Shown here: piece after piece, positions 7,204-34,036 of the stretch
How positions within the stretch are numbered: position 1 is the first letter of the stretch
Layout: each line of letters begins with the position of its first letter
From: Streptomyces sp. NBC_01233
GTDB taxonomy: Bacteria > Actinomycetota > Actinomycetes > Streptomycetales > Streptomycetaceae
Assembly (NCBI RefSeq): GCF_035989305.1
Contig: NZ_CP108514.1
Span: 7,792,501 to 7,856,500, forward strand
Direction: 5' to 3'
DNA length: 64,000 bases
Program-made: the position numbers and the translations under genes
The notes under the pieces: model-generated
Database searches by the model: none
What the model was told of the DNA's origin: nothing
The model's input: the letters and a program-made list of their open reading frames with translations, nothing else

Positions 7204-7525
7204 TATTGCAACGGTCTTTGCTGTGATGGTTTGTTGGCTTCTGGTGGTGTGTGGGCGCGTCGTTTGTAGTGGCTGGTGCGGGCTTGGTGTTGTCGTCTGC
7301 GGCGCCAGTGTGACCAGTGCAGGACGTGGTCGATGCTCGGGCGGGGCCGGGTGAGGCGGCTGATCAGGCGCCGGAGTTCGGGGAGGGTGAGGGGTATGAG
7401 CTGGGAGGATCCGTTTCTGCTTTCCCGGTGTCGAGTTCGCGGGCCCGCAGGACGGTGAGGCAGGCGTGTGCGGCCATGGCCAGGGTCATGTGGCGGTGCC
7501 AGCCGTCGAAGCGGCGGACCTGGTA
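7204..7525 (-). pseudogene. IS701-family remnant 1, C-terminal half
   Basis: In the sense direction this encodes YQVRRFDGWHRHMTLAMAAH, the end of an IS701 transposase, continuing from the piece at 10636 once the IS3 element between them is removed. After about 24 more residues the family tail (LIPLTLPELRRLISRL, HWSHWRRRRQHQARTSHYKR) is found only in the -1 frame. The end TATTGCAACGG matches an IS701 end at 50187. Confidence 0.75.
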
Positions 7526-7593
7526 TGAGCTTCCCCCGAGATGCGGGGATGGGTGACAGAGGGTCAGATGGGTCTCATGAGAGGAGCCCAGAC

Positions 7594-7617
7594 GATGCCT
7601 GCGCCGAGGAAGTATCC
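7594..7617 (+). pseudogene. IS3 orfA start, separated from its gene (copy 1)
   Basis: ATG at 7594 after GAGGAG encodes MPAPRKYP, the native first eight residues of orfA. The IS4a insertion follows directly. The rest of orfA resumes at 9394 with KYPLELRERAV, the repeated codons being the target duplication. Confidence 0.75.
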
Positions 7618-9391
7618 CAAGACCACGGAGTTATGGCTTGTCCGGCGCTGTCAACAGGGGCGGGGACAGGGGCTTGTGGAGGTTGGGGTGGTCCACTCGG
7701 GGTCGAGGGTGTAGAGGCCCCGGCCGGTGCGGCGGAGGATTCCTTCGCGGACCCAGCGTCCCAGTTCTGCGCGTAGTCCTTGGGGATCCTCCAGTCCGAT
7801 ACCGCGGGCGATTTCACATGCGCGCCAGGTGCGGTGGGGATCGGTTCGCAGGAGTTGCAGTGTGCGGTCGCGGCGTCCGTCGGGGCCTGGGCCAGCGGAG
7901 GGGTTCACAGTGACACTGATGCTGGTGATCCTGGATGCGCCCAGGACTTGTGCCTGGTGGGGCGGGGCGGCGTAGCGGGAGATCGGGCATTTGACGCGGC
8001 GTGGGTTGACGCGGGCCCGGCGGGGTGGGAGCAGATCGTGCAGCAGGGCCGGTGTGATTCGTCCCGGTCCGGTGTCGGGCAGTACGTCGGCTGCGGCGAT
8101 GAGCTGGTCTTTTGCGGTCTCCAGGGCGACGGTGAAGGAGGCGCGGTCCGGGTCGGTGCCGGGGAGGGTCTCGACGGCCTCGGCCATCGCGCGGCGCAGT
8201 GCCTGGTAGACGGTCAGGTGAGCCCAGAGTTCTTGTTGGATCCCGGTCGCGTCCTGGGATCGCAGCACCAGGCCGTGCTGCAGGGTGTGCCGAAGCGAGT
8301 AGAACGCGGACTCGATCTCCCATCGCTCGTGGTAGAGCTCCACCAGCTCTGCGGCGGGGTAGCGACGGTGATCGGTCAGCGCGGTGGCCAGTCGGTAGTG
8401 GCCTTCCAGCCTCAGCCCTTTGGCGGTCGTCACCGCGATGTGCGCATCGATGATCCTCAGCCGGGTCCCGTTGATCCTGGTCAGGAATGACCCGTCCGGC
8501 AGTAGTGCCCAGCGTGCGGGTGTCCGGGTTCCCTTGAGGCGTACCAGCAGCTGGGCGCCGGTGGCCGCGGCCTTCGCGAGGAAGTCGTCGGAGTCGAAGC
8601 CCCGGTCGTTGAGCAGCAGCATCCTGTTGTCCAGCAGTGGTAGCAGCTGCTCGGCGTAGCCGGTCTCCTTCTCGGGCGTCGGTCCGAAGACCGCACCGAG
8701 CAGGGCCCGGGTTCCGGTCTCGCACAGCACCATGATCTTCAGCATCGGATATCCGTCCGTGCCGTAACGATGCTTGTGTTTGCCCAGCCAGGCGCAGACT
8801 CGCGGCCGGTCAGGGGCCTTGGTGGAGCTGCAGCCGTCGAAGGCGACTGTGCGCCAGCACCTGTATCGCACCCCTGGTGTGATCGGCTGTGCCACGGGAC
8901 CGGCCAGTGTCTCGAAGAGCAGCCGCAGCGGCGCGGCGCCCAGCCGCCGGCGCACCTCTCGCAGCGCCTTCTCCGACGGACGCGGTGGAAGGAGCCCGCG
9001 CAGGCCGCAGGTGAGTTTGTCCCACACCCGCATGTAGCCCAGCTGCGGGAAGAGAACCAGTGCCAGCACGAAGTAGACACCCACCCTCGACGGCAGCAGC
9101 CTCAGCCTCCGCTGGGTTCCGCCAGTACGTTCCAGCACGTCATCGACCAGTTCAAAGGGCAGGTGCCGGGTCAGCTCGCCCAGATGCCCCGGAGCGAAGA
9201 CCCCGTCGGCGACGGTGATGGACGACGTGAGCGTGACGGTGGAACACTGAACGGGCAACGGGGCTCCTTCAGGCGGGAAGACCTTGGTCGGCTTCCTCGC
9301 TCTACCAGGAGTCCCGTTGCCCTGACCGGCACTTCTCCCAAATACCTCGCCCCTGTTGACAGCGGCCGACAAGCCATAACTCCGTGGTCTT
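7618..9391 (-). mobile_element. IS4-family element inside IS3 orfA (IS4a, copy 1)
   Basis: Long inverted repeats beginning CAAGACCACGGAGTTATGGC, and the complement at the right end, are flanked by 10-bp direct repeats GGAAGTATCC (7608-7617 and 9392-9401). The element is 1,774 bp and splits orfA after its eighth codon. Confidence 0.92.
7651..9258 (-). CDS. IS4a transposase, copy 1
   Basis: An IS4-type DDE transposase of about 535 residues with motifs VAFDGCSSTKAPD, LLLNDRGFDSDDF and YHERWEIESAFYSLR. The frame extends upstream to 9876, but that part is antisense to IS3 orfB. I start at the TTG at 9258, placed after a GAAGGAG ribosome binding site; a non-ATG start lowers certainty. The last about 80 residues (RTWRACEIARGIGLEDPQGL) look like a small winged helix, unusual for IS4. 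It differs from copies 2 and 3 by Ala versus Thr in LATALTDHRR. Confidence 0.82.
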   Translation of the reverse strand: MPVQCSTVTLTSSITVADGVFAPGHLGELTRHLPFELVDDVLERTGGTQRRLRLLPSRVGVYFVLALVLFPQLGYMRVWDKLTCGLRGLLPPRPSEKALREVRRRLGAAPLRLLFETLAGPVAQPITPGVRYRCWRTVAFDGCSSTKAPDRPRVCAWLGKHKHRYGTDGYPMLKIMVLCETGTRALLGAVFGPTPEKETGYAEQLLPLLDNRMLLLNDRGFDSDDFLAKAAATGAQLLVRLKGTRTPARWALLPDGSFLTRINGTRLRIIDAHIAVTTAKGLRLEGHYRLATALTDHRRYPAAELVELYHERWEIESAFYSLRHTLQHGLVLRSQDATGIQQELWAHLTVYQALRRAMAEAVETLPGTDPDRASFTVALETAKDQLIAAADVLPDTGPGRITPALLHDLLPPRRARVNPRRVKCPISRYAAPPHQAQVLGASRITSISVTVNPSAGPGPDGRRDRTLQLLRTDPHRTWRACEIARGIGLEDPQGLRAELGRWVREGILRRTGRGLYTLDPEWTTPTSTSPCPRPC

Positions 9392-9393
9392 GG

Positions 9394-9687
9394 AAGTATC
9401 CGCTGGAGTTGCGTGAGCGTGCGGTACGGATGTACCGGACCGCCGAGCCGAAGCCCGTGATCCGCCGCATGGCCGAGGAACTCGGCGTGCACCACGAGGC
9501 TCTGCGCAACTGGATCCGGCAGGCAGAGGCCGACGCCGGCGAACGCGACGACGTGCTCACCACTGGCGAGCGGGAGGAGCTTGCCGCCCTGCGGAAGGAG
9601 AATGCACAGCTCAAGCGTGCGAATGAGGTCCTGCGGACGGCCTCGGCTTTTTTCGCGGCCCAGCTCGACCCGACCCGGCCCAGGTGA
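9394..9687 (+). CDS. IS3-family OrfA (DNA-binding subunit), 5' end replaced by IS4 sequence
   Basis: Encodes an IS3 OrfA: helix-turn-helix VIRRMAEELGVHHEALRNWI, then a leucine-zipper-like stretch EREELAALRKENAQLKRANE. The native start lies beyond the inserted IS4 element. The frame remains open upstream into IS4 antisense sequence as far as 8770, so a fused OrfA with an IS4-encoded N-terminus could be made. No good ATG with a ribosome binding site is visible; an in-frame ATG within orfA (MYRTAEP, near 9430) is another possible start. It overlaps orfB by four bases. Confidence 0.75.
   Translation, partial: KYPLELRERAVRMYRTAEPKPVIRRMAEELGVHHEALRNWIRQAEADAGERDDVLTTGEREELAALRKENAQLKRANEVLRTASAFFAAQLDPTRPR
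9648..9654 (+). promoter_or_regulatory. -1 frameshift heptamer T TTT TTC in IS3 orfA
   Basis: The heptamer is in the correct register (TTT at 9649-9651, TTC at 9652-9654 in the orfA frame), and orfB lies in the -1 frame. Programmed -1 frameshifting to make OrfAB is established for the IS3 family. The same site is present in copies 2 and 3. Confidence 0.65.
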
Positions 9688-10604
9688 CGGCGCTCGTTGA
9701 CGAGCACCCGTATCTGGGGGTCGAGCCCGTACTCCGGGAACTGAACATCCCCTCCTCCACCTACTACCGGTGGCGCCAGGCCGAGACCGAACCGTGCGAA
9801 CGGCGCCGCCGGGATGCCGAGCTGACCAGCAGGATCCGGCAGGTCCACGAGGAGTCCGGCGGGATCTACGGCTCACCCCGCGTGCACGCCGTCCTCAAGC
9901 GTGAGGGCGTCCACGTCGGCAGGAAGCGCGTCGAGCGGCTCATGCGCCAGGCCGGCCTGGCCGGGATCAGTCCCCGCCGGGGCAAGGGTTTCACTCGCCG
10001 TGACCCGGACGCCGATCTGGCCCCTGACCTGGTGCAACGCGACTTCACCGCGGCCGGGCCGAACCGGCTGTGGGTTACCGACCTGACCATGATCCCCACC
10101 GGGGAGGGGCCGTTGTGGCTGTCCGCGATCCGCGACGCGTTCTCCCGCCGGGTGGTGGCCTGGGAGACCTCCGCCCGCGCCGACGCCGATCTGGTCCTGA
10201 CCTCGCTGGAATACGCCCTGGCCAGCCGCGAGGTCGCCCCCGGAGAGCTTATTCACCACGCCGACCACGGCTGTCAATACACGTCCGTGAAGCTCACAAC
10301 ACGCCTGGTCAGGGCCGGGATCCAGGCTTCCATGGGCTCGGTCGGCGACTCGTACGACAACGCCCTCGCGGAGAACCTGTGGATGGTCATCAAGACCGAG
10401 TGCATCCGCGGCCGCGTCTTCGCCACCAGGGCCGAGGCGAACCTCGCGCTCTTCGAGTACATCGACGGCTTCTACAACCCCCGCCGCATCCAGAAACGGC
10501 TCGGCTACCTCAGCCCCATCGAGTACGAGGAGAAGCACTACGCCAACCAGGCAGCGACCGAACAAGTGAACCTGAAACCACGTCAACCCACCCTGACCAG
10601 CTAG
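9684..10604 (+). CDS. IS3-family OrfB transposase, hybrid copy 1
   Basis: A 306-residue rve integrase-fold transposase. HTH_21-type N-terminus (SRIRQVHEESGGIYGSPRVH), then the DDE triad in WVTDLTMIP, HHADHGCQY and SYDNALAENLWMVIKTE, and the typical end YNPRRIQKRLGYLSPIEYEE. It starts at GTG 9684, overlapping the orfA stop, and is probably made mainly as an OrfAB frameshift fusion. Intact. Confidence 0.9.
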   Translation: MTALVDEHPYLGVEPVLRELNIPSSTYYRWRQAETEPCERRRRDAELTSRIRQVHEESGGIYGSPRVHAVLKREGVHVGRKRVERLMRQAGLAGISPRRGKGFTRRDPDADLAPDLVQRDFTAAGPNRLWVTDLTMIPTGEGPLWLSAIRDAFSRRVVAWETSARADADLVLTSLEYALASREVAPGELIHHADHGCQYTSVKLTTRLVRAGIQASMGSVGDSYDNALAENLWMVIKTECIRGRVFATRAEANLALFEYIDGFYNPRRIQKRLGYLSPIEYEEKHYANQAATEQVNLKPRQPTLTS

Positions 10605-10635
10605 TCAGCCCCTCCCGCAGTGCGGGGGAACCTCA

Positions 10636-10930
10636 GTAGTCGTCCAGGCCGCACTCCTGCTTCGCGGTCTGGAAGCATTCCTCGACCGCCCACCGGCTGC
10701 CGGCCACGCGGATTAGCTCGTCCAGTGTGGTCTCGGCCGGGCAGTAGGCGATGTAGTAGGAGATCTCCTCCGGCCGGCGGACACTTCTGCGGGCGATCAC
10801 CCAGTGCCGGCGGTCCTCGCGATGCCAGGGCCTCACCTCGACCCTCCCCAGTCACAGACCCGCGGGCCGTGGGCGCCGTTGCCACAGGAACGACGCTTCC
10901 ACTTCTGCCTCGGCAGCCCGTCGGCGGCGG
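10636..10930 (-). pseudogene. IS701-family remnant 1, central part
   Basis: Encodes HWVIARRSVRRPEEISYYIA and RWAVEECFQTAKQECGLDDY, the C-terminal catalytic region of an IS701 transposase; RWAVEE contains the third acidic residue. Just upstream, KWKRRSCGNGAHGPRVCDW is in another frame, consistent with a one-base deletion near 10850. Its far end is joined to the istB start at about 10930, so the N-terminal half is missing. Confidence 0.75.
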
Positions 10931-25264: not shown

Positions 25265-26110
25265 TCACTCGGTGGGCGCGTTGGTGGCGTTGGGTGGTGC
25301 GGGGGCGCTTTTAGGGAGCTCGGTGGGGTAGATCTCGTCCATGCTTCCCTCGGGCAGGTAGCGGCGGGGGAAGGCGATCCATTCGTCGTGCAGTTCGAAG
25401 AGCACGGCTGTGACCAGTCGCAGGAGGGCGTCGTCGTTGGGGAAGACCTGGACGACGTCGGTGCGGCGCTTGATCTCGCGGTTGATCCGTTCGAGCGGGT
25501 TGGTGGACTGGATCTTCTTCCAGTGCCGTTCCGGGAAGGCCGCGAAGGCGGTCAGGTCGTCCTTGGCGTCCAGGAGCATCTGTTTGACCTTGGGGAACTG
25601 CTTGCCGAGCATCTCGGCGACGGTGTCGAGCTGGGTGCGGACCGCGTCCTGGGTGGGCTGGGCGAAGACTGTGCGGATGGTTGCGGCGACCATCTCGGTC
25701 GCCTCCTTCGGAATCACCGCGAAGACATTTCGCAGAAAATGAACACGGCATCTCTGCCACGCGGCGCCGAGCATGACCTTGCGGATCGCCTTGACCAGGC
25801 CGGAATGGCTGTCGGACAGGACCAGGCGGACCCCGGTCAGGCCGCGTTCGCGCAGGGAGCGCAGGAACTCGGCCCAGAACGCCTCGGTCTCGCTGTCGCC
25901 GACCATGACGCCCAGGACCTCGCGGCCGCCGTCCTCGGTGATCCCGGTGGCGACGACCACGGCGCGAGAGACGATCTGGTGGTTCACGCGTGCCTTGCAG
26001 TAGGTGGCGTCCAGGTACATGTAGGGGAAGCGGGTGTGGTCCAGCGGCCGGGTGCGGAAGGCGGTCAGCGGCTCGTCCAGGTCCGCGCAGATCCGGGAGA
26101 CCTCGCTCTT
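25265..26110 (-). pseudogene. IS256-family transposase, C-terminal part
   Basis: Contains all three catalytic regions: MYLDATYCKARVNHQIVSRA, VLSDSHSGLVKAIRKV with AAWQRCRVHFLRNV, and STNPLERINREIKRRTDVVQ. It joins to the N-terminal part at 33638 through the 3-bp duplication CTT, which restores GISK-SEVSRICADLDEPL. Disrupted, so inactive. Confidence 0.88.
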
Positions 26111-26202
26111 TGAGCTTCCCCCGAGATGCGGGGATGGGTGACAGAGGGTCAGATGGGTCTCATGAGAGGAGCCCAGACGATGCCTGCGCCGAGGAAGTAT
26201 CC

Positions 26203-27976
26203 CAAGACCACGGAGTTATGGCTTGTCCGGCGCTGTCAACAGGGGCGGGGACAGGGGCTTGTGGAGGTTGGGGTGGTCCACTCGGGGTCGAGGGTGTAGA
26301 GGCCCCGGCCGGTGCGGCGGAGGATTCCTTCGCGGACCCAGCGTCCCAGTTCTGCGCGTAGTCCTTGGGGATCCTCCAGTCCGATACCGCGGGCGATTTC
26401 ACATGCGCGCCAGGTGCGGTGGGGATCGGTTCGCAGGAGTTGCAGTGTGCGGTCGCGGCGTCCGTCGGGGCCTGGGCCAGCGGAGGGGTTCACGGTGACA
26501 CTGATGCTGGTGATCCTGGATGCGCCCAGGACTTGTGCCTGGTGGGGCGGGGCGGCGTAGCGGGAGATCGGGCATTTGACGCGGCGTGGGTTGACGCGGG
26601 CCCGGCGGGGTGGGAGCAGATCGTGCAGCAGGGCCGGTGTGATTCGTCCCGGTCCGGTGTCGGGCAGTACGTCGGCTGCGGCGATGAGCTGGTCTTTTGC
26701 GGTCTCCAGGGCGACGGTGAAGGAGGCGCGGTCCGGGTCGGTGCCGGGGAGGGTCTCGACGGCCTCGGCCATCGCGCGGCGCAGTGCCTGGTAGACGGTC
26801 AGGTGAGCCCAGAGTTCTTGTTGGATCCCGGTCGCGTCCTGGGATCGCAGCACCAGGCCGTGCTGCAGGGTGTGCCGAAGCGAGTAGAACGCGGACTCGA
26901 TCTCCCATCGCTCGTGGTAGAGCTCCACCAGCTCTGCGGCGGGGTAGCGACGGTGATCGGTCAGCGTGGTGGCCAGTCGGTAGTGGCCTTCCAGCCTCAG
27001 CCCTTTGGCGGTCGTCACCGCGATGTGCGCATCGATGATCCTCAGCCGGGTCCCGTTGATCCTGGTCAGGAATGACCCGTCCGGCAGTAGTGCCCAGCGT
27101 GCGGGTGTCCGGGTTCCCTTGAGGCGTACCAGCAGCTGGGCGCCGGTGGCCGCGGCCTTCGCGAGGAAGTCGTCGGAGTCGAAGCCCCGGTCGTTGAGCA
27201 GCAGCATCCTGTTGTCCAGCAGTGGTAGCAGCTGCTCGGCGTAGCCGGTCTCCTTCTCGGGCGTCGGTCCGAAGACCGCACCGAGCAGGGCCCGGGTTCC
27301 GGTCTCGCACAGCACCATGATCTTCAGCATCGGATATCCGTCCGTGCCGTAACGATGCTTGTGTTTGCCCAGCCAGGCGCAGACTCGCGGCCGGTCAGGG
27401 GCCTTGGTGGAGCTGCAGCCGTCGAAGGCGACTGTGCGCCAGCACCTGTATCGCACCCCTGGTGTGATCGGCTGTGCCACGGGACCGGCCAGTGTCTCGA
27501 AGAGCAGCCGCAGCGGCGCGGCGCCCAGCCGCCGGCGCACCTCTCGCAGCGCCTTCTCCGACGGACGCGGTGGAAGGAGCCCGCGCAGGCCGCAGGTGAG
27601 TTTGTCCCACACCCGCATGTAGCCCAGCTGCGGGAAGAGAACCAGTGCCAGCACGAAGTAGACACCCACCCTCGACGGCAGCAGCCTCAGCCTCCGCTGG
27701 GTTCCGCCAGTACGTTCCAGCACGTCATCGACCAGTTCAAAGGGCAGGTGCCGGGTCAGCTCGCCCAGATGCCCCGGAGCGAAGACCCCGTCGGCGACGG
27801 TGATGGACGACGTGAGCGTGACGGTGGAACACTGAACGGGCAACGGGGCTCCTTCAGGCGGGAAGACCTTGGTCGGCTTCCTCGCTCTACCAGGAGTCCC
27901 GTTGCCCTGACCGGCACTTCTCCCAAATACCTCGCCCCTGTTGACAGCGGCCGACAAGCCATAACTCCGTGGTCTT
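26203..27976 (-). mobile_element. IS4a copy 2
   Basis: Flanked by GGAAGTATCC at 26193-26202 and 27977-27986, exactly as in copy 1. Nearly identical to copy 1, with at least two base differences (26494, 26967) shared with copy 3. Confidence 0.92.
26236..27843 (-). CDS. IS4a transposase, copy 2
   Basis: Intact frame with the same DDE motifs as copy 1 (VAFDGCSSTKAPD, LLLNDRGFDSDDF, YHERWEIESAFYSLR) and Thr instead of Ala in LATTLTDHRR. This is the only intact transposase of the IS4a type in the nest. Confidence 0.82.
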   Translation of the reverse strand: MPVQCSTVTLTSSITVADGVFAPGHLGELTRHLPFELVDDVLERTGGTQRRLRLLPSRVGVYFVLALVLFPQLGYMRVWDKLTCGLRGLLPPRPSEKALREVRRRLGAAPLRLLFETLAGPVAQPITPGVRYRCWRTVAFDGCSSTKAPDRPRVCAWLGKHKHRYGTDGYPMLKIMVLCETGTRALLGAVFGPTPEKETGYAEQLLPLLDNRMLLLNDRGFDSDDFLAKAAATGAQLLVRLKGTRTPARWALLPDGSFLTRINGTRLRIIDAHIAVTTAKGLRLEGHYRLATTLTDHRRYPAAELVELYHERWEIESAFYSLRHTLQHGLVLRSQDATGIQQELWAHLTVYQALRRAMAEAVETLPGTDPDRASFTVALETAKDQLIAAADVLPDTGPGRITPALLHDLLPPRRARVNPRRVKCPISRYAAPPHQAQVLGASRITSISVTVNPSAGPGPDGRRDRTLQLLRTDPHRTWRACEIARGIGLEDPQGLRAELGRWVREGILRRTGRGLYTLDPEWTTPTSTSPCPRPC

Positions 27977-27978
27977 GG

Positions 27979-28272
27979 AAGTATCCGCTGGAGTTGCGTG
28001 AGCGTGCGGTACGGATGTACCGGACCGCCGAGCCGAAGCCCGTGATCCGCCGCATGGCCGAGGAACTCGGCGTGCACCACGAGGCTCTGCGCAACTGGAT
28101 CCGGCAGGCAGAGGCCGACGCCGGCGAACGCGACGACGTGCTCACCACTGGCGAGCGGGAGGAGCTTGCCGCCCTGCGGAAGGAGAATGCACAGCTCAAG
28201 CGTGCGAATGAGGTCCTGCGGACGGCCTCGGCTTTTTTCGCGGCCCAGCTCGACCCGACCCGGCCCAGGTGA
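27979..28272 (+). CDS. IS3 OrfA, hybrid copy 2
   Basis: Identical in sequence to OrfA of copy 1, with its native start separated by IS4a and the frame open upstream into IS4a antisense sequence. The T TTT TTC slip site is retained. Confidence 0.75.
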   Translation, partial: KYPLELRERAVRMYRTAEPKPVIRRMAEELGVHHEALRNWIRQAEADAGERDDVLTTGEREELAALRKENAQLKRANEVLRTASAFFAAQLDPTRPR

Positions 28273-28804
28273 CGGCGCTCGTTGACGAGCACCCGTATCT
28301 GGGGGTCGAGCCCGTACTCCGGGAACTGAACATCCCCTCCTCCACCTACTACCGGTGGCGCCAGGCCGAGACCGAACCGTGCGAACGGCGCCGCCGGGAT
28401 GCCGAGCTGACCAGCAGGATCCGGCAGGTCCACGAGGAGTCCGGCGGGATCTACGGCTCACCCCGCGTGCACGCCGTCCTCAAGCGTGAGGGCGTCCACG
28501 TCGGCAGGAAGCGCGTCGAGCGGCTCATGCGCCAGGCCGGCCTGGCCGGGATCAGTCCCCGCCGGGGCAAGGGTTTCACTCGCCGTGACCCGGACGCCGA
28601 TCTGGCCCCTGACCTGGTGCAACGCGACTTCACCGCGGCCGGGCCGAACCGGCTGTGGGTTACCGACCTGACCATGATCCCCACCGGGGAGGGGCCGTTG
28701 TGGCTGTCCGCGATCCGCGACGCGTTCTCCCGCCGGGTGGTGGCCTGGGAGACCTCCGCCCGCGCCGACGCCGATCTGGTCCTGACCTCGCTGGAATACG
28801 CCCT
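28269..28804 (+). pseudogene. IS3 OrfB, hybrid copy 2, N-terminal part
   Basis: The first about 178 residues of OrfB, ending at LTSLEYAL where copy 3 is inserted (duplication CCT at 28802-28804 and 33219-33221). The first catalytic Asp (WVTDLTMIP) is here; the second Asp and the Glu are in the part at 33219-33606. Confidence 0.9.
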
Positions 28805-28929
28805 TGAGCTTCCCCCGAGATGCGGGGATGGGTGACAGAGGGTCAGATGGGTCTCATGAGAGGAGCCCAGACGATGCCTGCGCCGAGGAAGTATCCCAAG
28901 ACCACGGAGTTATGGCTTGTCCGGCGCTG

Positions 28930-29811
28930 TCAACAGGGGCGGGGACAGGGGCTTGTGGAGGTTGGGGTGGTCCACTCGGGGTCGAGGGTGTAGAGGCCCC
29001 GGCCGGTGCGGCGGAGGATTCCTTCGCGGACCCAGCGTCCCAGTTCTGCGCGTAGTCCTTGGGGATCCTCCAGTCCGATACCGCGGGCGATTTCACATGC
29101 GCGCCAGGTGCGGTGGGGATCGGTTCGCAGGAGTTGCAGTGTGCGGTCGCGGCGTCCGTCGGGGCCTGGGCCAGCGGAGGGGTTCACGGTGACACTGATG
29201 CTGGTGATCCTGGATGCGCCCAGGACTTGTGCCTGGTGGGGCGGGGCGGCGTAGCGGGAGATCGGGCATTTGACGCGGCGTGGGTTGACGCGGGCCCGGC
29301 GGGGTGGGAGCAGATCGTGCAGCAGGGCCGGTGTGATTCGTCCCGGTCCGGTGTCGGGCAGTACGTCGGCTGCGGCGATGAGCTGGTCTTTTGCGGTCTC
29401 CAGGGCGACGGTGAAGGAGGCGCGGTCCGGGTCGGTGCCGGGGAGGGTCTCGACGGCCTCGGCCATCGCGCGGCGCAGTGCCTGGTAGACGGTCAGGTGA
29501 GCCCAGAGTTCTTGTTGGATCCCGGTCGCGTCCTGGGATCGCAGCACCAGGCCGTGCTGCAGGGTGTGCCGAAGCGAGTAGAACGCGGACTCGATCTCCC
29601 ATCGCTCGTGGTAGAGCTCCACCAGCTCTGCGGCGGGGTAGCGACGGTGATCGGTCAGCGTGGTGGCCAGTCGGTAGTGGCCTTCCAGCCTCAGCCCTTT
29701 GGCGGTCGTCACCGCGATGTGCGCATCGATGATCCTCAGCCGGGTCCCGTTGATCCTGGTCAGGAATGACCCGTCCGGCAGTAGTGCCCAGCGTGCGGGT
29801 GTCCGGGTTCC
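28930..29811 (-). pseudogene. IS4a transposase copy 3, C-terminal part
   Basis: Encodes the region from ALLPDGSFLTRINGTRLRII to the C-terminus, including YHERWEIESAFYSLR. The N-terminal part lies at 31113-31841. Confidence 0.88.
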
Positions 29812-29844
29812 TGAAGTTTCCCCGTGATCTTGGACACGGTGTTG

Positions 29845-30741
29845 TTACGCTGCGAGGGCCTGGTCTTGCCGGTATCGCAGGCGGGTTTCGTGGGGTGTGA
29901 GGTAGCCCCAGTGGATGTGCTTGCGTAGGCGGCGTCTGTTGTAGAAGGTCTCGATGAAGTCGAAGATGTCGGCGCGGGCGGTGGCCCGGTCGGGCCAGAA
30001 GCGGGTGCCGATCTCTTCTTTCAGGACGGCCCAGAAGCTCTCCGCGGCGGCGTTATCGAAGCAGCTCCCGGTCCGGCCCATACTTTGCCGGTGCCCCAAC
30101 TTGCTGATTTTTGTGCGGAGTTGACCGGAGGTGTATTCCGATCCGCGGTCACTGTGGATCACACAGCCGGGTTCCAGGCGGCCCAGCGCGGCTGCCATGT
30201 CCAGCGCGTCGACGACGAGGTCGGCGCGGTGGTGGTCGGCCATCGAGTACCCGATCACCTCGCGCGTGGCCAGGTCCAGCCACGAGGCGAGGTAGAGCCA
30301 GCCCTCGGCGGTGGGGATGTAGGTGATGTCCCCGACGATTTTCGTTCCGGGACGGATGGCGGTGAAGTCCCGGCCGATCAGGTCCGGCGACGGGGCGGCC
30401 TTGGTGTCGGCCTTGGTCAGGCCGCGGCGTCCGGTGCGCCGGCTGTTCCCGGCGATGCCGTTCTCCCGCATGACCCGTGCCACCCGCTTACGGTTGACCA
30501 CCCGGCCCTGCCGGCGCAGTTCGGCGGTGACGCGCGGGACGCCGTAGTTCCGCCGGGAGGCGATGTAGATCACCGTGATCTCGTGTGCCAGGGTCTCATC
30601 CGCCCGTCGCCTGGCTTCGCGGGCCTCGGCTCCGGCCACCCACGCGTAGTACGTGGACCGGGCGGTCTTCATCACCGTGCACAGCAGCACGATCGTGTAG
30701 TTCGCCTTCTCCGCGTGGATGAACCGGCATATCGTGCTCAC
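29845..30741 (-). CDS. IS3b OrfB transposase
   Basis: A 298-residue rve transposase beginning MSTICRFIHAEKANYTIVLL. Triad motifs IVGDITYIPTAEGWLYLASW, VIHSDRGSEYTSGQL and CFDNAAAESFWAVLKEE, end RRLRKHIHWGYLTPHE. Its GTG start overlaps the end of orfA. Intact. Confidence 0.9.
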   Translation of the reverse strand: MSTICRFIHAEKANYTIVLLCTVMKTARSTYYAWVAGAEAREARRRADETLAHEITVIYIASRRNYGVPRVTAELRRQGRVVNRKRVARVMRENGIAGNSRRTGRRGLTKADTKAAPSPDLIGRDFTAIRPGTKIVGDITYIPTAEGWLYLASWLDLATREVIGYSMADHHRADLVVDALDMAAALGRLEPGCVIHSDRGSEYTSGQLRTKISKLGHRQSMGRTGSCFDNAAAESFWAVLKEEIGTRFWPDRATARADIFDFIETFYNRRRLRKHIHWGYLTPHETRLRYRQDQALAA

Positions 30742-31045
30742 CGGTCGCTCTCCTTCGCGAAGAAGGCGGTCGCTTTTTCAGGATCTCGATCGTCTTCGCC
30801 TGCTCTACGGTCAGCTTCCGCAGCCGCTTCAGTTCCTCGTCCCGGTCGTCGGCGGCCCGCACGGCGCCGGGTCCCGATCCGTTGTCCTGGGCGGCCCGGG
30901 CCTTCTTCACCCAGCCCCGCAGGGACTCCGAGCTGATCCCGAGTTCCCGGGCGACCTCGGTCACCGTCCGGCCCGACGACCGCACGAGCTCGATCGCGTC
31001 CCGCTTGTACTCGTCCGAGTACCGCTTCGTGTACTTGCTTCCCAC
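30732..31045 (-). pseudogene. IS3b OrfA, frameshifted near its end
   Basis: Starts MGSKYTKRYSDEYKRDAIEL with a typical helix-turn-helix (TVTEVARELGISSESLRGWV). In EILKK the A-run has five bases where six would keep the usual end ATAFFAKESDR in frame; that end is found in another frame up to the overlap with orfB. A one-base deletion is the likely cause, though it could also alter how OrfAB is made. Confidence 0.7.
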
Positions 31046-31112
31046 CTGGCACTACTTCCTCTGGAACCTCAGATCCCAGTCTCCAGGTGTCCACGATCAA
31101 GGGGAAGCTTCA

Positions 31113-31841
31113 TCCCTTGAGGCGTACCAGCAGCTGGGCGCCGGTGGCCGCGGCCTTCGCGAGGAAGTCGTCGGAGTCGAAGCCCCGGTCGTTGAGCAGC
31201 AGCATCCTGTTGTCCAGCAGTGGTAGCAGCTGCTCGGCGTAGCCGGTCTCCTTCTCGGGCGTCGGTCCGAAGACCGCACCGAGCAGGGCCCGGGTTCCGG
31301 TCTCGCACAGCACCATGATCTTCAGCATCGGATATCCGTCCGTGCCGTAACGATGCTTGTGTTTGCCCAGCCAGGCGCAGACTCGCGGCCGGTCAGGGGC
31401 CTTGGTGGAGCTGCAGCCGTCGAAGGCGACTGTGCGCCAGCACCTGTATCGCACCCCTGGTGTGATCGGCTGTGCCACGGGACCGGCCAGTGTCTCGAAG
31501 AGCAGCCGCAGCGGCGCGGCGCCCAGCCGCCGGCGCACCTCTCGCAGCGCCTTCTCCGACGGACGCGGTGGAAGGAGCCCGCGCAGGCCGCAGGTGAGTT
31601 TGTCCCACACCCGCATGTAGCCCAGCTGCGGGAAGAGAACCAGTGCCAGCACGAAGTAGACACCCACCCTCGACGGCAGCAGCCTCAGCCTCCGCTGGGT
31701 TCCGCCAGTACGTTCCAGCACGTCATCGACCAGTTCAAAGGGCAGGTGCCGGGTCAGCTCGCCCAGATGCCCCGGAGCGAAGACCCCGTCGGCGACGGTG
31801 ATGGACGACGTGAGCGTGACGGTGGAACACTGAACGGGCAA
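31113..31841 (-). pseudogene. IS4a transposase copy 3, N-terminal part
   Basis: Begins as in copy 1 after the GAAGGAG ribosome binding site and includes VAFDGCSSTKAPD and LLLNDRGFDSDDF, then is cut at RLKG by IS3b. Confidence 0.85.
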
Positions 31842-31976
31842 CGGGGCTCCTTCAGGCGGGAAGACCTTGGTCGGCTTCCTCGCTCTACCAGGAGTCCCGT
31901 TGCCCTGACCGGCACTTCTCCCAAATACCTCGCCCCTGTTGACAGCGGCCGACAAGCCATAACTCCGTGGTCTTGG

Positions 31977-32270
31977 AAGTATCCGCTGGAGTTGCGTGAG
32001 CGTGCGGTACGGATGTACCGGACCGCCGAGCCGAAGCCCGTGATCCGCCGCATGGCCGAGGAACTCGGCGTGCACCACGAGGCTCTGCGCAACTGGATCC
32101 GGCAGGCAGAGGCCGACGCCGGCGAACGCGACGACGTGCTCACCACTGGCGAGCGGGAGGAGCTTGCCGCCCTGCGGAAGGAGAATGCACAGCTCAAGCG
32201 TGCGAATGAGGTCCTGCGGACGGCCTCGGCTTTTTTCGCGGCCCAGCTCGACCCGACCCGGCCCAGGTGA
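31977..32270 (+). CDS. IS3 OrfA, hybrid copy 3
   Basis: Same sequence as in copies 1 and 2, fused upstream to IS4a antisense sequence; slip site retained. Its partner orfB is intact, so copy 3 still encodes both IS3 proteins. Confidence 0.75.
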   Translation, partial: KYPLELRERAVRMYRTAEPKPVIRRMAEELGVHHEALRNWIRQAEADAGERDDVLTTGEREELAALRKENAQLKRANEVLRTASAFFAAQLDPTRPR

Positions 32271-33187
32271 CGGCGCTCGTTGACGAGCACCCGTATCTGG
32301 GGGTCGAGCCCGTACTCCGGGAACTGAACATCCCCTCCTCCACCTACTACCGGTGGCGCCAGGCCGAGACCGAACCGTGCGAACGGCGCCGCCGGGATGC
32401 CGAGCTGACCAGCAGGATCCGGCAGGTCCACGAGGAGTCCGGCGGGATCTACGGCTCACCCCGCGTGCACGCCGTCCTCAAGCGTGAGGGCGTCCACGTC
32501 GGCAGGAAGCGCGTCGAGCGGCTCATGCGCCAGGCCGGCCTGGCCGGGATCAGTCCCCGCCGGGGCAAGGGTTTCACTCGCCGTGACCCGGACGCCGATC
32601 TGGCCCCTGACCTGGTGCAACGCGACTTCACCGCGGCCGGGCCGAACCGGCTGTGGGTTACCGACCTGACCATGATCCCCACCGGGGAGGGGCCGTTGTG
32701 GCTGTCCGCGATCCGCGACGCGTTCTCCCGCCGGGTGGTGGCCTGGGAGACCTCCGCCCGCGCCGACGCCGATCTGGTCCTGACCTCGCTGGAATACGCC
32801 CTGGCCAGCCGCGAGGTCGCCCCCGGAGAGCTTATTCACCACGCCGACCACGGCTGTCAATACACGTCCGTGAAGCTCACAACACGCCTGGTCAGGGCCG
32901 GGATCCAGGCTTCCATGGGCTCGGTCGGCGACTCGTACGACAACGCCCTCGCGGAGAACCTGTGGATGGTCATCAAGACCGAGTGCATCCGCGGCCGCGT
33001 CTTCGCCACCAGGGCCGAGGCGAACCTCGCGCTCTTCGAGTACATCGACGGCTTCTACAACCCCCGCCGCATCCAGAAACGGCTCGGCTACCTCAGCCCC
33101 ATCGAGTACGAGGAGAAGCACTACGCCAACCAGGCAGCGACCGAACAAGTGAACCTGAAACCACGTCAACCCACCCTGACCAGCTAG
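32267..33187 (+). CDS. IS3 OrfB transposase, hybrid copy 3
   Basis: A 306-residue intact OrfB with WVTDLTMIP, HHADHGCQY and SYDNALAENLWMVIKTE. Identical in protein sequence to copy 1. Confidence 0.9.
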   Translation: MTALVDEHPYLGVEPVLRELNIPSSTYYRWRQAETEPCERRRRDAELTSRIRQVHEESGGIYGSPRVHAVLKREGVHVGRKRVERLMRQAGLAGISPRRGKGFTRRDPDADLAPDLVQRDFTAAGPNRLWVTDLTMIPTGEGPLWLSAIRDAFSRRVVAWETSARADADLVLTSLEYALASREVAPGELIHHADHGCQYTSVKLTTRLVRAGIQASMGSVGDSYDNALAENLWMVIKTECIRGRVFATRAEANLALFEYIDGFYNPRRIQKRLGYLSPIEYEEKHYANQAATEQVNLKPRQPTLTS

Positions 33188-33218
33188 TCAGCCCCTCCCG
33201 CAGTGCGGGGGAACCTCA

Positions 33219-33606
33219 CCTGGCCAGCCGCGAGGTCGCCCCCGGAGAGCTTATTCACCACGCCGACCACGGCTGTCAATACACGTCCGTGAAGCTCACA
33301 ACACGCCTGGTCAGGGCCGGGATCCAGGCTTCCATGGGCTCGGTCGGCGACTCGTACGACAACGCCCTCGCGGAGAACCTGTGGATGGTCATCAAGACCG
33401 AGTGCATCCGCGGCCGCGTCTTCGCCACCAGGGCCGAGGCGAACCTCGCGCTCTTCGAGTACATCGACGGCTTCTACAACCCCCGCCGCATCCAGAAACG
33501 GCTCGGCTACCTCAGCCCCATCGAGTACGAGGAGAAGCACTACGCCAACCAGGCAGCGACCGAACAAGTGAACCTGAAACCACGTCAACCCACCCTGACC
33601 AGCTAG
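33219..33606 (+). pseudogene. IS3 OrfB, hybrid copy 2, C-terminal part
   Basis: Resumes LASREVAPGELIHHADHGCQ after copy 3 and runs to the native stop. It forms a 390-bp direct duplication with the end of copy 3 immediately to its left. Confidence 0.9.
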
Positions 33607-33637
33607 TCAGCCCCTCCCGCAGTGCGGGGGAACCTCA

Positions 33638-34036
33638 CTTGGAGATCCCGGTGTCCGCGCCCAGGGCCTTGACCAAGTCGTCCACCGACCGGGTGGACAC
33701 GCCATGGACGTAGGCCTCCACGATGACCGCGTACAGGGCCTGGTCGATCCGGCGCCGGCGCTCCAGCAGGCTGGGGAAGAAGCTTCCGGCGCGCAGTTTG
33801 GGGATGGCCAGCTCCAGGTCGCCGGCCTGGGTGGTGAGCGTCTTCTCGCGGTGCCCGTTGCGCAAGGCGGTACGGGCCTCGGTGTGCTCGTTCCAGCCGG
33901 CACCGATGTGGGCAGCGGCCTCGGCCTCGATCAGCTCCTGCAGCATCCGCTCGGCGATGCCGCGGACGAGTTCGAGTCCGTCTGCCGAGCGTAGTGACTC
34001 CAGCAGGCGTAATAGGTCAGACTGGGACAGGGCCAC
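33638..34036 (-). pseudogene. IS256-family transposase, N-terminal part
   Basis: Starts at GTG 34036 after GGAGGT and encodes about 133 residues (SQSDLLRLLESLRSADGLEL, AEAAAHIGAGWNEHTEARTA, YVHGVSTRSVDDLVKALGAD), ending GISK where the hybrid element entered. The usual IS256 N-terminal region is complete. Confidence 0.88.

What the first reader, a model, noticed from the sequence alone, without database searches (positions are those of the whole stretch)
26111..33637. An IS3 element carrying an IS4 element appears to move as one 3.1-kb hybrid transposon
Three copies (7526-10635, 26111-33637, 28805-33218) have the same IS4 insertion at the same base of IS3 orfA with the same inner duplication GGAAGTATCC, but each outer copy has its own 3-bp target duplication: GTA, CTT, CCT. 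So the IS4 inserted once and the hybrid then transposed at least twice using the IS3 ends. One copy landed inside another. The IS4 cargo rides on IS3.
Basis: seen in the sequence. Interest (0 to 1): 0.75.

Follow-up and report, generated by a model that had tools for sequence, protein, structure and literature searches.

The report
IS4 that homes into IS3 elements
In this Streptomyces genome one small jumping element (IS4 family) was found only at the same few codons inside the transposase gene of another kind of jumping element (IS3 family), and several of its relatives do the same to other jumping elements, so it looks like a parasite of transposons rather than a one-off hitchhiker.

Summary
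In detail: three IS3-IS4 hybrids, each with its own 3-bp outer duplication (GTA, CTT, CCT). Corrections: the inner duplication is 9 bp, and copy C's IS4 carries a further IS3-family element.

The inference "same base, so IS4 inserted once" fails. The genome search found 16 copies of this IS4 (close to ISSav1). All 16 lie at codons 6-8 (Lys-Tyr-Pro) of IS3-family orfA, in at least four different IS3s and both orientations. A 21-base pattern for that site occurs 17 times in the genome; all 17 abut the IS4. Relatives in Streptomyces, Catenuloplanes and Nocardia use the same site. A sister clade sits at one site in IS5-type transposase genes (13 of 13); others sit in IS110, IS256 and IS3-orfB-like genes.

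Transposases of this superclade carry a roughly 100-residue C-terminal extension, predicted as a winged helix, that CTAG-targeting relatives lack. I propose it reads the target (inferred; one group has it without targeting ISs).

Whether the window's hybrids moved as units or were each hit after the IS3 spread stays open, about even: nine complete hybrids have proper IS3 duplications and no empty copy of this IS3 was found, but every matching site is filled.

The parts
7526..10635 (+). Copy A: complete IS3a element (orfA/orfB on +) carrying the IS4; outer TSD GTA (7523-7525, 10636-10638)
7618..9392 (-). IS4-family element (close to ISSav1), 1775 bp, in copy A; transposase on the - strand
7654..9258 (-). 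IS4 transposase, 535 aa (TTG start): Nterm_IS4 + DDE_Tnp_1 + C-terminal extension with a predicted winged helix
7654..7953 (-). C-terminal extension (residues about 436-535; winged helix predicted at residues 462-518), absent from CTAG-targeting relatives; proposed target reader
7609..7617 (+). Left copy of the 9-bp IS4 target duplication GAAGTATCC, orfA codons 6-8 (orfA ATG at 7595)
9393..9401 (+). Right copy of the 9-bp IS4 target duplication GAAGTATCC
9394..9687 (+). Rest of IS3a orfA (HTH_Tnp_1); its frame stays open back into the IS4
9684..10604 (+). IS3a orfB (HTH_21 + rve), 306 aa
26111..33637 (+). Copy B: hybrid interrupted by copy C; outer TSD CTT (26108-26110, 33638-33640); IS4 at 26203-27977
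28805..33218 (+). Copy C: hybrid inserted in copy B's orfB; TSD CCT (28802-28804, 33219-33221); IS4 pieces 28897-29811 and 31113-31975
29812..31112 (-). Further IS3-family element (called IS3e here) inserted in copy C's IS4, TSD TCC

Best explanation
The IS4 is a site-specific insertion sequence that preys on other insertion sequences. Its transposase inserts it, in either orientation, at one 9-bp position over codons 6-8 (Lys-Tyr-Pro) of IS3-family orfA, duplicating 9 bp. It has done so repeatedly and fills every site that matches the consensus pattern in this genome. Once inside, it can also be carried when the IS3 ends move. The nine complete hybrids with their own 3-bp duplications come from such carriage, from separate hits on IS3 copies already spread, or from both. 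Shown from sequence: repeated same-site insertion, both orientations, occupation of all pattern matches, and lineage-specific targets in relatives. Inferred: the C-terminal winged helix reads the target, and the hybrid can move as a unit.
For: All 16 IS4 copies found in the genome have orfA Lys-Tyr-Pro-type flanks on both sides: 12 with matching 9-bp duplications and 4 recombinants. GAARTAYYC occurs 307 times in the genome, but in the wider orfA context 17 times, and all 17 abut the IS4. In the IS3-site clade of the tree, 6 of 6 members with a readable junction (one, L107, readable on one side only) use this site; 2 more (L027, L029) have none. In the IS5-site clade it is 13 of 13. Pfam names flanking genes as IS110, rve, IS5-type and Mutator transposases. 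Two other IS4-family groups in the same genome have other kinds of sites (one copy straddles an IS end). The C-terminal extension is present across the superclade apart from four rows with short frames (L027, L052, L062, L113), and absent from the CTAG clade; it is predicted as a winged helix with block pLDDT 86-94.
Against: Specificity rests on natural insertions only; nothing was tested at the bench. 14 of 43 distinct superclade sites could not be assigned to a transposase gene, and the Nocardiopsis group, which has the extension, sits in other places; one of the superclade flank pieces is a peptidase gene. So the extension does not by itself mean targeting of other ISs. Same-target pairs have only a somewhat more similar winged helix than different-target pairs in the same core-identity bin: 0.36 (n 6) vs 0.30 (n 162), 0.53 (n 4) vs 0.48 (n 23), 0.70 (n 36) vs 0.53 (n 10, but with lower core identity). 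In Catenuloplanes only 1 of 3 matching sites is occupied. The tree is a quick one with warnings about long branches.
Confidence: 0.85

Rival explanations
1. Hitchhiking: one IS4 insertion into an IS3 made a 3.1-kb hybrid, and the hybrid then spread by IS3 transposition. This can be true for the same-orientation copies even though the IS4 is site-specific.
For: Nine complete hybrids with matching 3-bp duplications at different flanks. No empty IS3a found: all 12 IS3a right parts adjoin the IS4. Seven of nine in one orientation. IS3 orfA remainder and orfB open and identical between copies. Complete hybrids with 3-bp duplications GGC and GCG in two other Streptomyces.
Against: Two copies have the opposite orientation, so a second IS4 arrival in IS3a or an inversion is needed. 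The IS4 cuts orfA off from its own start codon, and a sigma-70-type scan found no promoter-like site. Occupation of all 17 matching sites makes separate hits equally able to explain the pattern. Orientation p = 0.18.
Confidence: 0.5
2. Pure homing: IS3a spread first, empty; the IS4 arrived later and hit each copy separately. The hybrid never moved.
For: Repeated same-site insertion in different IS3s. 17 of 17 matching sites occupied. In G055 nine matching sites, all empty, so the IS3 can spread alone.
Against: It needs at least nine separate hits with a 7:2 orientation split. In Catenuloplanes only 1 of 3 matching sites is occupied.
Confidence: 0.4
3. Safe haven only: the IS4 inserts anywhere, but copies elsewhere are lost by selection, leaving those inside other ISs.
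For: ISs are dispensable DNA (general knowledge), and nested ISs occur in this window.
Against: Selection would not choose the same nucleotide position in different IS3s, nor one site in IS5-type genes in 13 of 13 cases. Two other IS4-family groups in the same genome do not show it.
Confidence: 0.04
4. Assembly artefact or segmental duplication.
For: Long exact repeats are a classic source of misassembly, and reads could not be examined. Some copies are duplicated with the chromosome ends.
Against: Different flanks with intact 3-bp duplications at nine places. The same junction type occurs in independent genomes.
Confidence: 0.03

Closest known systems
ISSav1 (IS4 family)
   Same: Transposase 482/534 (90%) identical to P0008, which a source names ISSav1 family, including the C-terminal extension. 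That ISSav1 comes from Streptomyces avermitilis is recalled.
   Different: Its own insertion sites were not examined here. One search (ISSav1 with 'insertion sequence') listed 5 of 8,658 papers, none holding ISSav1; papers holding ISSav1 alone are not excluded.
ISRm22 (IS4 family, IS4Sa subgroup) in REP sequences
   Same: An IS4-family member with strict target choice, nine copies in the text and 10/10 in the table in REP elements (PMC1525189, passages seen; subgroup from PMC2266710).
   Different: Its target is an extragenic palindrome, not a codon run in another IS's transposase gene.
IS231 in class II transposons such as Tn4430
   Same: IS4-family elements that insert at a fixed place in another transposon (PMC1626470, passages seen).
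   Different: There the site is in the terminal inverted repeat of class II transposons; here it is inside a coding sequence, at orfA codons 6-8.
IS4321/IS5075 (IS1111 group) in Tn21 inverted repeats
   Same: ISs that target other transposons at one site (title in the reference list of PMC11187229, seen in passages).
   Different: DEDD transposase guided by a seekRNA, with no added target bases. Here a DDE transposase with a 9-bp duplication and no RNA guide proposed.
IS with passenger genes (tIS)
   Same: An IS3-family element moving with extra DNA would resemble a tIS (term recalled; papers only listed).
   Different: The passenger is a complete IS with its own transposase that enters at a preferred site.

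Membership tests
IS4 family | IS4 transposase profile above the curated cut-off | tested here: met
   NF033592 144.5 bits vs 115; PF13006 101.1 vs 25; PF01609 53.5 vs 23
IS4 family | DDE triad and Y(2)R(3)E(6)K motif | tested here: inconclusive
   D141, D218, E316, Y309 and R312 invariant in 40 sequences; that these are the catalytic residues is inferred from the motif spacing; the K position is R323 in this element (sequence). Motif from PMC2266710 (passages)
IS4 family | CA tips with inverted repeats and a target duplication of about 10 bp | tested here: met
   CAAGACC..GGTCTTG, 16/16 terminal match, 9-bp duplication
IS4 family | Fold related to Tn5 transposase | tested here: met
   Best PDB matches of the predicted model are Tn5 transposase chains, E 7.8e-8
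IS3 family (the host element IS3a) | orfA (HTH_Tnp_1) and orfB (HTH_21 + rve), TG..CA ends, 3-bp duplication | tested here: met
IS3 family (the host element IS3a) | Programmed -1 frameshift between orfA and orfB | not testable with these tools
   A T6 run lies near 9648; no assay
Site-specific ISs that target transposons | Repeated insertion at one position of another mobile element | tested here: met
   16 of 16 copies found in the genome; relatives
IS1111/IS110 RNA-guided ISs | DEDD transposase with a long non-coding region giving a guide RNA, no target duplication | tested here: not met
   DDE_Tnp_1 domain, 9-bp duplication, 33 bp and 134 bp outside the gene
IS with passenger genes (tIS) | Passenger gene not involved in transposition | tested here: not met
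   The passenger is an IS with its own transposase

The most novel reading that the evidence does not exclude
A branch of the IS4 family gained a C-terminal winged-helix domain that works as an exchangeable target reader. Different lineages of the branch read different conserved coding motifs in transposase genes (IS3 orfA Lys-Tyr-Pro, the IS5-type Tyr-Cys-His-Arg...Asp-Ala motif, IS110, IS256), making them parasites of transposons that fill the copies of their prey and ride on them.
Probability: 0.4. Interest if true: 0.85.

Novelty: new variant of a known kind. Interest (0 to 1): 0.62.

Why it matters
Transposons that strike other transposons at one base are known in a few cases; those I met in print strike terminal repeats. 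Here a whole IS4-family branch appears to do it inside conserved coding motifs, with the motif changing from lineage to lineage and a candidate protein domain that could set the choice. That makes target choice by DDE transposases testable by domain swaps, offers a natural case of one mobile element checking or exploiting another, and warns that identical nested junctions are not proof of shared descent. The copies also sit at rearrangement points, including the edge of the chromosome's terminal inverted repeats.

Tried and rejected
Chance insertion: rejected by exact repeats and single-base precision.

A 9-mer as the whole target: rejected. GAARTAYYC occurs 307 times in the genome, and 16 IS4 copies can account for at most 32 of these; the wider orfA context matters.

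Target resembles the element's own ends (recalled for some ISs): tested. For the IS3-site elements the best 12-mer match near the site (6-9 of 12) was no better than in control stretches. Rejected for this clade. Sites of the Nocardiopsis group and of L044, L052 and L061 do lie between CAAGG/CCTTG-like arms (read by eye); unexplained.

Conserved winged helix among same-target pairs as proof of its role: one search shows only a modest tendency; not used as proof.

IS4-borne promoter driving orfA: (sigma-70-type consensus only) found none; the orfA frame is open into the IS4 in both orientations but no start is evident. Left open.

Sequence search of the extension against solved structures: nothing significant, best E 0.1. 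Foldseek gave winged-helix proteins only at E about 0.2-0.5 over about 60-77 columns; the matched range was not shown, so that these lie on the extension is inferred.

Literature: searches gave no description, in titles, abstract starts and the passages I opened, of an IS4-family lineage that inserts in other ISs' transposase genes. Searches returned no paper. The library lacks most subscription journals, and only four papers were opened (PMC2266710, PMC11187229, PMC1525189, PMC1626470), in passages, plus section 7 of PMC2266710.
Full report
Observation. The three hybrids are real and as described, with corrections. Copy A (7526-10635), copy B (26111-33637) and copy C (28805-33218, inside B's orfB) have IS3 outer ends TGAGCTTCCCCC..GGGGGAACCTCA with target duplications GTA, CTT and CCT. 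The IS4 is 1775 bp with tips CAAGACC..GGTCTTG. Copies in the opposite orientation show that the duplication is 9 bp, GAAGTATCC, not 10. Copy C's IS4 is split again by a 1301-bp IS3-family element with duplication TCC. Profiles confirm an IS4-family transposase (NF033592, 144.5 bits against a cut-off of 115) and IS3-family OrfA and OrfB.

In the whole genome. The window is part of a 10.3-Mb genome held in 4 contigs; its genus is Streptomyces, since the same-genus genome G321 matches Streptomyces sp. H27-H1 (L138 and L025, 100% over 4,578 bases). One search found 16 copies of this IS4 (15 in one piece plus the split copy C; 40 of 368 first-look candidates were scored). The junctions of all 16 were read. 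Twelve have the same 9 bp on both sides. Four are recombinants (L015, L016, L020, L023), but every one of their flanks is also an orfA site. The targets are codons 6-8 (Lys-Tyr-Pro) of orfA in at least four IS3s: IS3a (both orientations), IS3b (on the 70.5-kb contig C2), IS3c (about 83% like IS3a over the part that aligns) and IS3d. The names IS3a to IS3e are mine. The IS4 is 99.8-100% identical in all of them. A single insertion followed by carriage cannot give this. Position 8382 is C in copy A and in L017 (IS3c) and T in the other copies of this genome that cover it and in two other genomes, so the IS4, or its sequence, also passed between two different IS3s.

Saturation. GAARTAYYC occurs 307 times in the genome. 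The longer pattern GAARTAYYC-N4-GARYTNMG, which also spells the following orfA codons, occurs 17 times, and all 17 are next to the IS4. The pattern misses IS3d, which is also occupied. In the genome of L138 it is 1 of 1 and on the NBC_00998 plasmid 1 of 1; in the Catenuloplanes genome 1 of 3; in the Nocardia vaccinii genome the pattern does not occur. In the 13 other same-genus genomes given to these calls, chosen because they carry the IS3 or an IS4 relic, 0 of 36 sites are occupied. The IS3 is commoner than the IS4: 51 of 392 genomes of the genus have an IS3 match at E 1e-100 or better, and 11 of 392 an IS4 DNA match at that limit, G000 counted in both. Of the 29 IS3 loci from other genomes fetched, 25 are empty at the site, 1 (L181) carries the IS4 and 3 (L192, L197, L199) lack the junction.

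Relatives. Element ends and duplications were looked for in the 80 loci (383 stretches encoded a relative; the best 80 were kept), in those and in the genome's own. After dropping loci without resolvable ends or duplication, with short flanks, or with a repeated site, 73 distinct target sites remained (L026 was dropped there for a short flank but has a clear site). On a quick tree of 84 rows (the program warns of long branches) the superclade of 54 rows has SH-aLRT 100. The clade of the window's IS4 has eight rows with SH-aLRT 100; 6 of 6 with a readable junction sit at the Lys-Tyr-Pro site (L107 on one side only), and L027 and L029 have none. A separate pair, L143/L062, gives one more Lys-Tyr-Pro site. 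A relic, L110, not in the tree, has its one readable end at the same kind of site. A clade of 13 (SH-aLRT 88) sits at one site in IS5-type transposase genes (Tyr-Cys-His-Arg-x-Met-Leu-Asp-Ala), 13 of 13: ten by motif, three by the DNA of the site, where the motif search failed. Two copies in one genome (L149, L166) use that site in IS5 copies of different sequence. Other relatives sit in IS110 (L142, Pfam run on the identical L030), rve-type (L141 through L111, L032), IS5-type at another site (L140 through L112), Mutator/IS256 (L058) and DDE_Tnp_4 (L065, on a long branch) transposase genes, and L153 lies in or beside one. By my hand classification 28 of 43 distinct superclade sites are inside transposase genes (IS3a is counted twice, once per orientation), 1 in or beside, and 14 not assigned.

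Controls. Relatives that lack the extension have other targets. Twenty-four tree rows have CTAG- or TTAG-centred duplications, and one subfamily of this same genome has six sites with no common sequence. With equal treatment, the longest open piece next to each junction was scanned with Pfam: 0 of 56 pieces from 30 control sites matched a transposase family, against 8 DDE_Tnp_1, 2 rve, 2 DDE_Tnp_4, 1 Mutator and 1 IS110 matches (some pieces may match two families) among 84 pieces from 42 superclade sites. This method missed the orfA targets because longer antisense frames were picked. One control-subfamily copy (L117/L124, duplicated with the chromosome ends) straddles the end of an IS3e copy and was not among the 30.

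A candidate reader. Past alignment column 440 the superclade transposases have 94-121 more residues, except four rows with short frames (L027 0, L052 5, L062 2, L113 20) and L041 187, L046 197 and L065 52, while the CTAG/TTAG and no-consensus groups have 0-33 (rows whose frame held a stop were left out). AlphaFold2 on 40 sequences gives mean pLDDT 84.3; residues 462-518 fold as helix, short strand, helix, helix, strand, strand, a winged helix, at block pLDDT 86-94. Foldseek puts Tn5 transposase first (E 7.8e-8), and roughly 60-77-column matches to winged-helix proteins follow at E 0.2-0.5. Pfam AbiEi_4 matches 8 of 19 of these domains at E 0.01 or better, below its cut-off for the window's own. 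A search with this part alone found 31 proteins, 30 of them with DDE_Tnp_1. That the domain reads the target is inferred from presence, fold and phylogeny. The comparison of same-target and different-target pairs was only modestly in favour, and the Nocardiopsis group has the domain without an IS target that I could name.

Did the hybrid move as a unit? Nine complete hybrids have matching 3-bp duplications at nine different places, no empty IS3a was found (40 of 275 first-look candidates scored), and complete hybrids with duplications GGC and GCG exist on the NBC_00998 plasmid and in Streptomyces sp. H27-H1. But a site-specific IS4 could also have hit each IS3a after it spread; the 7:2 orientation split gives p = 0.18, and across other IS3 targets both orientations occur. 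The IS4 separates orfA from its own start codon; the frame stays open into the IS4 in both orientations, but no promoter-like site was found. I put carriage and homing at about even odds for the window's copies.

Known context. IS4-family elements make about 10-bp duplications, and some have strong target preference (PMC2266710, section 7 and passages). ISRm22 sits in REP elements (PMC1525189, passages). IS231 elements sit at the ends of class II transposons (PMC1626470, passages). IS4321 and IS5075 target Tn21 inverted repeats (title in the references of PMC11187229). The window's element is 90% identical in protein to one named ISSav1. The parts are thus known kinds. The coding-motif targets, their change between lineages and the extra domain were not met in the searches named under Tried and rejected.

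Noticed in passing
L012, L015 (C1:169366-178476 and C1:10007974-10018235): The chromosome's two ends are 100% inverted copies where sampled at 50 and 100 kb, not at 176.5 kb, and identity of L012 and L015 stops at the IS4/IS3 junction about 175.4 kb in, so the repeat edge lies at this IS4, probably through recombination between IS4 copies.
   Followed up: partly
L015, L016, L020, L023: Chimeric copies (IS3 right half - IS4 - IS3 right half, and IS3a-IS3b mixtures) point to recombination within the IS4 between chromosome places and contig C2.
   Followed up: partly
window 7909 and 8382: Two derived bases in copy A's IS4; the one at 8382 is shared with L017 in a different IS3, 79 kb away.
   Followed up: yes
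L118-L125 and L126-L133: Two more IS4-family groups in this genome: one with 10-bp duplications without consensus, one with TTAG/CTAG-centred duplications.
   Followed up: partly
L035-L038, L040, L044, L052, L061: Target sites of these relatives lie near CAAGG- and CCTTG-like arms resembling the element's own tips.
   Followed up: no
L146, L148, L150, L151, L165, L170: A sister clade whose flanks are not direct repeats but often inverted or unrelated; perhaps flank exchange between copies or wrongly placed ends.
   Followed up: no
P0029: A 357-aa protein annotated with PF14104 (DUF4277) carries a stretch like the C-terminal extension (53% over 83% of the query part); perhaps the same domain on another transposase, or an insertion.
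   Followed up: no
window 18756-20446/47105-48795, 37497-38832/58301-59636, 40844-42000/45950-47106: Three pairs of 100% complementary inverted repeats of IS size.
   Followed up: no
L024 (C1:1453290-1453483): Old remnant of an IS3-IS4 junction of the same type, 86-94% identical.
   Followed up: partly
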